From: Methanobrevibacter millerae
GTDB lineage: Archaea; Methanobacteriota; Methanobacteria; Methanobacteriales; Methanobacteriaceae
Assembly: GCF_900103415.1 (NCBI RefSeq)
Contig: NZ_FMXB01000004.1
Coordinates: 62,001 to 126,000, forward strand
Reading direction: 5' to 3'
DNA: 64,000 nt
This document shows, one piece after another, positions 11,061 through 11,212 of the stretch (positions within the stretch are counted from its first letter, which is position 1; each line of letters opens with the position of its first letter). Under the pieces are notes generated by a model. The model saw only the letters and a program-made list of their open reading frames with translations. It did no database searches and had not been told where the DNA came from. The position numbers and the translations under genes are program-made.

Positions 11061-11212
11061 ATCCTATTTAAAGTTTACTCAATTGTCGTGACTCCTAAGA
11101 ATTGTTTCGACCCTTAAGAATTGTTTTCACTCCTAAGAATTGTCCTCACTCTTAAGAATTGTCGTGACTCCTAAGAATTGTCCTCACTGATACATAATAT
11201 TTATACTTTTCC
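11061..11212 (-). promoter_or_regulatory. 19-bp tandem repeat promoter element, six units
   Basis: Six units of exactly 19 bp start at 11081, 11100, 11119, 11138, 11157 and 11176; the first is aattgtcgtgactcctaag. The edge toward the TROVE-like gene is conserved with the other arrays and reads ACTTTAAATAGGAT on the minus strand, a good TATA box (about 11064-11074). The far edge, actgatacataatatttatactt, is also shared. On the minus strand the repeat unit is CTTAGGAGTCACGACAATT. Tandem sites beside a TATA box suggest cooperative binding of a regulator. Confidence 0.65.

What the first reader, a model, noticed from the sequence alone, without database searches (positions are those of the whole stretch)
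11061..11212. 19-bp tandem repeat promoter shared by three (four) loci
Units with exactly 19-bp period (CTTAGGAGTCACGACAATT on the minus strand) occur in 6, 4, 3 and a decayed 4 copies at 11.1, 14.9, 53.4 and 1.9 kb. In the first three the array ends in a TATA box facing minus-strand genes (TROVE-like, a 61/122/324-residue operon, a membrane protein/HTH operon), and the other end (actgatacataatattta) is also conserved. 19 bp is close to two helical turns, which fits a protein polymer on one DNA face. A regulon with tunable operator number is inferred.
Basis: partly seen in the sequence, partly recalled or inferred. Interest (0 to 1): 0.8.

Follow-up and report, generated by a model that had tools for sequence, protein, structure and literature searches.

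The report
Phased operator arrays between outward promoters
In gut methanogens of the genus Methanobrevibacter, short 19-base units stacked end to end sit next to outward-pointing promoters at many unrelated genes, which suggests a shared but still unidentified regulator.

Summary
Four window arrays keep a strict 19-bp period (6, 4, 3 and 4 decayed units). I read 18 array loci in this 2.72-Mb Methanobrevibacter-like genome (two of them decayed or single-unit), and diverged arrays occur through much of the genus (model R2: 41 of 67 genomes).

Across 75 arrays here and in relatives, all 109 unit-to-unit steps are exactly 19 bp.

Arrays lie upstream of at least one gene at 67 of 76 loci. One also precedes a structured RNA absent from Rfam, with TATA-to-hairpin distance fixed at 31-32 nt in the nine genomes measured. 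In the window, the 11.1-kb array precedes three hairpin RNAs and a Ro60-like gene.

Best reading: a genus-specific tandem-operator promoter regulon, often bidirectional, bound by an unknown protein. "One DNA face" is not supported. Two winged-helix candidates failed a phyletic test. Activation versus repression is unresolved.

The parts
11081..11194 (.). array 1: six 19-bp units (last one the terminal variant)
   Evidence: R2 39.8 bits, E 2.5e-11 for the window
11065..11072 (-). TATTTAAA, left TATA facing the hairpin RNAs and the Ro60-like gene
   Evidence: same element in orthologues of G014 and G071
11198..11205 (+). TATTTATA, right TATA in the fixed phase
10725..10961 (-). three tandem hairpin RNAs with a CAGCA motif next to the 5' arm (arms at 10945-10961/10883-10895, 10858-10873/10789-10799, 10759-10775/10725-10733)
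   Evidence: same layout in relatives and in viral contigs
9167..10675 (-). 502-aa Ro60/TROVE-like protein with a vWA-like domain (Pfam DUF2828 and DUF7788)
   Evidence: AF2 model pLDDT 69, best PDB match Ro60 2i91, E 3.6e-6
11709..12854 (+). Hmd hydrogenase gene, first gene right of array 1 (515 bp away)
14843..14918 (.). array 2: four 19-bp units
14827..14834 (-). TATTTATA, left TATA
14922..14929 (+). TATTTAAA, right TATA in the fixed phase
13028..14589 (-). 61/122/327-aa gene cluster left of array 2, no Pfam match
   Evidence: a 324-aa homologue also lies left of an array in G035 (L118) and L109
15227..15838 (+). DUF3800 protein right of array 2
53361..53417 (.). array 3: three 19-bp units
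53345..53352 (-). TATTTAAC, left TATA-like box facing the 77-aa/63-aa genes
53421..53428 (+). TATTTAAA, right TATA in the fixed phase; would read antisense into the 3' end of the 1025-aa ORF (53452-56529, -)
52721..53176 (-). 77-aa membrane-type protein and 63-aa winged-helix-like protein left of array 3
1930..2005 (.). decayed array: four degenerate units in 19-bp register, no phased right TATA
   Evidence: (14.2, 11.4 and 10.5 bits)

Best explanation
Each array is a row of binding sites (operators) for one sequence-specific protein, placed directly upstream of a core archaeal promoter and often between two divergent ones. The protein occupies neighbouring units side by side, which would need the exact 19-bp spacing, and changes how often TBP/TFB use the adjoining TATA boxes. 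Because the units lie upstream of the TATA rather than over the start site, I favour activation, but weakly. Shown: repeat, exact period, phase of the right TATA, recurrence at unrelated and orthologous loci, link to gene and RNA starts. Inferred: that one protein binds, cooperativity, activation, and that unit number sets output. The regulator is not identified.
For: All 109 of 109 steps are 19 bp although 18-20 was allowed. Right TATA at phase 5 in 19 of 29 independent groups; 26 groups in two adjacent phases, none of 5000 rotations as high. Phased right TATA in 62 of 75 arrays. 76 loci fall into 30 orthologue groups; 14 groups are in two or more genomes. 36 loci divergent, 8 convergent. The Ro60-like gene keeps an array and both TATA boxes in G014 and G071 although unit sequence drifted. 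The array-linked RNA starts 31-32 nt after its TATA in 9 of 9 genomes measured, and G032 reads alike.
Against: Left TATA is not significantly phased over independent groups (p 0.41). Right TATA is as frequent where no gene follows (17 of 22) as where one does (44 of 52), so it may belong to the array end rather than to a gene promoter. Dyad symmetry of the unit is only suggestive (p 0.08). Two adjacent winged-helix proteins fail the phyletic test. No start-site or binding data.
Confidence: 0.7

Rival explanations
1. A dispersed repeat or mobile promoter cassette: the array with its two ends spreads by copying and is promoter-like only by content, without a dedicated regulator.
For: Ends are alike at unrelated loci (GATACATAATATTTAAA right; TTTAAAGCTTGTTGAGCTCACT left). 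Arrays 1 and 2 of the window share both ends, while G071 has one array where G000 has two. A single unit sits at the 3' end of argB (L017) without TATA.
Against: Positions are conserved between species at 14 of 30 groups; no target-site duplication or transposase was seen to go with them (not searched systematically); units drift while period and TATA phase stay.
Confidence: 0.15
2. Operators for a repressor: the protein coats the array and blocks TBP/TFB, and strong TATA boxes fire when it leaves.
For: At many left ends the unit abuts the TATA within 0-8 bp, which would overlap the BRE. An array lies between integrase and replication genes of an integrative element in six genomes, a place typical of silencing.
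Against: At the phased right end the last unit's AATT core lies about 24 bp upstream of the TATA (5 bp for the unit's end), clear of the start site.
Confidence: 0.3
3. An architectural element: phased AATT runs shape chromatin (histone or Alba binding) and keep promoters open, without regulation.
For: AATT cores recur every 19 bp with G/C-containing middles.
Against: Information extends over most of the unit (for example G at position 5 in 96% and T at 9 in 90% of 184 units), more than a shape code needs; arrays are few per genome.
Confidence: 0.08

Closest known systems
BldC of Streptomyces (PMC5859096, passages read)
   Same: One small protein binds sites with varying numbers of direct repeats near promoters; its repeat is AATT followed by four bases and a C; binding is cooperative.
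   Different: Bacterial; repeat is 9 bp, not 19; no BldC-like protein was sought or found here.
Archaeal Lrp-family regulators such as Ss-LrpB (search listing and abstract starts only)
   Same: Archaeal regulators; cooperative binding at promoters is mentioned in the listed papers' text counts.
   Different: Not compared in detail; no known Lrp motif was matched, and no regulator was identified here.
Bacterial LexA/SOS regulon (recalled)
   Same: One operator shared by scattered chromosomal genes and by integrated elements.
   Different: Single operators rather than tandem arrays; no LexA homologue or damage link tested.
Ro60/Y RNA ribonucleoproteins (PMC11277228, search listing only; structure match)
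   Same: The gene left of array 1 encodes a Ro60-like protein preceded by small hairpin RNAs.
   Different: It is one target of the arrays, not the array system.

Membership tests
Archaeal operator regulon (known kind) | one motif upstream of several unrelated transcription units | tested here: met
   30 orthologue groups from 76 loci
Archaeal operator regulon (known kind) | motif at fixed place relative to core promoter | tested here: met
   right end: 19 of 29 groups in one phase, p < 0.0002; left end not significant, p 0.41
Archaeal operator regulon (known kind) | cognate DNA-binding regulator known | tested here: not met
   81-aa wHTH: no match in array-bearing G014, G009, G020; 63-aa wHTH: none in G014, G009, G020, G062
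Archaeal operator regulon (known kind) | transcription responds to the regulator | not testable with these tools
   no expression data
BldC-type direct-repeat binding | 9-bp direct repeats | tested here: not met
   all 109 steps are 19 bp
CRISPR array | repeats separated by unique spacers | tested here: not met
   units abut directly, no spacers
Replication iterons | one cluster beside a replication initiator gene | tested here: not met
   18 loci in one genome, flanked by diverse genes
Palindromic operator | dyad symmetry of the unit | tested here: inconclusive
   best axis in AATT, score 0.59 against null mean 0.42, p 0.08

The most novel reading that the evidence does not exclude
A global regulatory system private to Methanobrevibacter, in which a protein polymer on 19-bp units sets output from paired promoters according to unit number; it controls a clade-specific structured RNA, a phage-shared Ro60-like RNP, biosynthetic genes, and is tapped by integrative elements.
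Probability: 0.3. Interest if true: 0.8.

Novelty: new variant of a known kind. Interest (0 to 1): 0.6.

Why it matters
Methanobrevibacter makes much of the methane of ruminants, and little is known of how its genes are controlled. A motif that can be searched, with 30 groups of candidate targets, turns the search for the regulator into a simple pull-down. Arrays with natural differences in unit number at orthologous genes would also let the effect of operator number be measured. The conserved RNA beside valS gives a ready reporter.

Tried and rejected
Regulator candidates: the 81-aa winged-helix protein (window 1498-1743) has matches in 19 of 67 genomes, but none in array-rich G014, G009 and G020. 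The 63-aa winged-helix protein (52721-52912) has matches in 32 of 67, but none in G014, G009, G020 and G062. Both rejected as the general regulator.

Symmetry: I first took the unit for a clear palindrome. The column-permutation test gave p 0.08, so it is reported as suggestive only. Phase locking on the left side looked good when orthologues were counted separately but failed after collapsing into groups (p 0.41).

Rows dropped: array hits in G087 (inside a coding frame), G003 and G088 were left out, and G062_C277 (contig end) also out of the 75-array sets. Only hits of model R1 and of the own genome were read as loci; the further R2 hits were not read. Two own-genome matches, C8:29471 and C4:129309, lie in coding sequence and were discarded as chance.

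Structure prediction of the 434-aa protein at L017 gave pLDDT 56 and was not used; its RNA-ligase-like motif (EKLDGT) is recalled, with no support in Pfam, NCBIfam or PDB sequence searches. Viral contigs hold no array by two exact patterns and no relative of the element's integrase; 17 viral Ro60-like loci of the 80 fetched hold no R2 match. Named genome scan: 4 loci, all Methanobrevibacter. Paper searches on the repeat listed nothing that describes it; this covers only that open-licence library.

Full report
What was checked. The arrays have 6, 4 and 3 units, and a decayed fourth array at 1930-2005 keeps the register. The whole genome, 2,720,712 bases in 48 contigs, has 24 unit matches against 1 for the reversed pattern. 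With two further patterns I collected 18 loci in this genome; one is the decayed window array and one a lone unit at the 3' end of argB.

Who has it. A strict two-unit pattern occurs in 2 of 61 genomes, G000 and G014, both of one genus. That pattern was too strict: the orthologous Ro60-like loci in G014 and G071 carry drifted units with the same period and the same flanking TATA. A two-unit sequence model (R1; two of its 22 rows were idealised by me) finds 21 of 67 genus genomes at E 0.01, and a broader one (R2, all rows real) 41 of 67 at E 0.001; E-values of these models are rough. A scan of named genomes with an exact pattern gave 4 loci, all from Methanobrevibacter assemblies; viral contigs gave none.

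Geometry. From the R1 hits and the own genome I took 75 arrays. All 109 steps between units are 19 bp although 18 to 20 was allowed. TATA hexamers sit at fixed distances from the array. Because orthologues are not independent, I collapsed the loci into 29 groups by their first flanking genes. On the right side, 19 of 29 groups have a hexamer at phase 5, and no one of 5000 random rotations reached the observed clustering; on the left side the clustering is not significant (p 0.41). A hexamer in phase 4-8 lies right of 62 of 75 arrays, and is as common where the next gene converges (17 of 22) as where it points away (44 of 52). It is therefore a property of the array end; whether it always fires is unknown. 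Nineteen base pairs are 1.81 helical turns, so units rotate by about 69 degrees and do not lie on one face.

Unit. Over 184 units the consensus is about AATTGTYCTSACTSATAAR on the plus strand of the window. The middle and the AATT suggest two-fold symmetry, but the test gives p 0.08.

Neighbours. Of 76 loci, 36 lie between divergent genes, 31 have one gene pointing away, and 9 none. The 76 loci make 30 groups, 14 of them in two or more genomes. Recurrent neighbours include valS, a zinc-ribbon peptide with a TIGR04083 radical SAM enzyme, trpE, a split DNA polymerase B fragment, Trm5, hemD, cas2-cas1, RhuM, a DUF4325-like STAS pair and the Ro60-like gene. No single pathway unites them. In six genomes an array lies next to a phage-type integrase of an element that, in the locus scanned, also encodes an MCM helicase.

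The RNA beside valS. Here the array lies between convergent genes, which looked like a case against promoters. Between array and valS, however, nine genomes share a region with three stems and ten base pairs kept through changes on both sides. Rfam has no match at gathering score. The distance from the TATA to the first hairpin is 31 or 32 nt in nine of nine genomes measured, although the bases between differ; G032 reads alike. A model of its 5' part hits 10 of 67 genomes, all with arrays at that place. In a valS tree of 30 rows these are nine members of one ten-member group (fork support 93/58) plus distant G013; the tenth, G066, has by eye a diverged copy and a degenerate array. Of the other 19 rows I read 11 regions by eye and saw neither there, for example G007 and G029, where the acetyltransferase gene follows valS closely. 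The co-occurrence of RNA and arrays may thus be common descent and is not evidence for a functional bond.

The 11.1-kb locus. Left of array 1, three hairpin RNAs with a CAGCA motif precede a 502-aa protein. Its predicted model (pLDDT 69) matches Ro60 best (2i91, E 3.6e-6). 17 of these viral loci carry no array. In Methanobrevibacter this RNA-protein cassette thus seems to have come under the array promoter.

Interpretation. The best reading is a tandem-operator regulon. Activation is favoured weakly from the position upstream of the TATA; repression is the main rival. The regulator is unknown, and two adjacent winged-helix proteins are excluded as the general regulator because array-rich genomes lack them. 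In mode of action the nearest relative that I read about is BldC, which binds variable numbers of AATT-containing direct repeats cooperatively (PMC5859096, passages), but its repeat is 9 bp.

Limits. Promoter calls rest on TATA hexamers in AT-rich DNA; no transcript data exist here. Groups were formed by flanking-gene similarity, which may join or split loci wrongly. Only part of the R2 hits was read.

Noticed in passing
window 9167-10961 (-); L275:2200-2501: A Ro60-like protein gene preceded by three CAGCA hairpin RNAs; the same three-hairpin layout stands before a 70%-identical gene on a 155-kb viral contig. Upstream of 80 viral homologues, 90 of 259 CAGCA motifs sit at a hairpin base against 5 of 85 in shuffled sequence. 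Possible Y-RNA-like partners shared by phages and archaea.
   Followed up: partly
L010 about 4750-5000 (G000:C18:39978-40066 for the 5' part): Structured RNA of about 200 nt beside valS, in 10 of 67 genus genomes by model, not in Rfam at gathering score.
   Followed up: partly
L104, L125, L126, L127, L136, L137: Integrative element with phage-type integrase (and MCM helicase where scanned) carrying an array between integrase and the following genes, in six genomes.
   Followed up: partly
window 5391-5412: Weak R2 match (16.5 bits, E 5.7e-4) followed by AAATACATCCATTAAAA, perhaps a fifth degenerate array end.
   Followed up: no
L118 and L154: Arrays beside cas2-cas1 in G035 and G032; no CRISPR array was recognised in the stretches held.
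   Followed up: partly
window 493-1306: A 329-bp unit in 2.5 copies, 89% matches.
   Followed up: no
L015:3902-4140 (-): HEARO RNA (RF02033), 104 bits, about 800 bp from an array.
   Followed up: no
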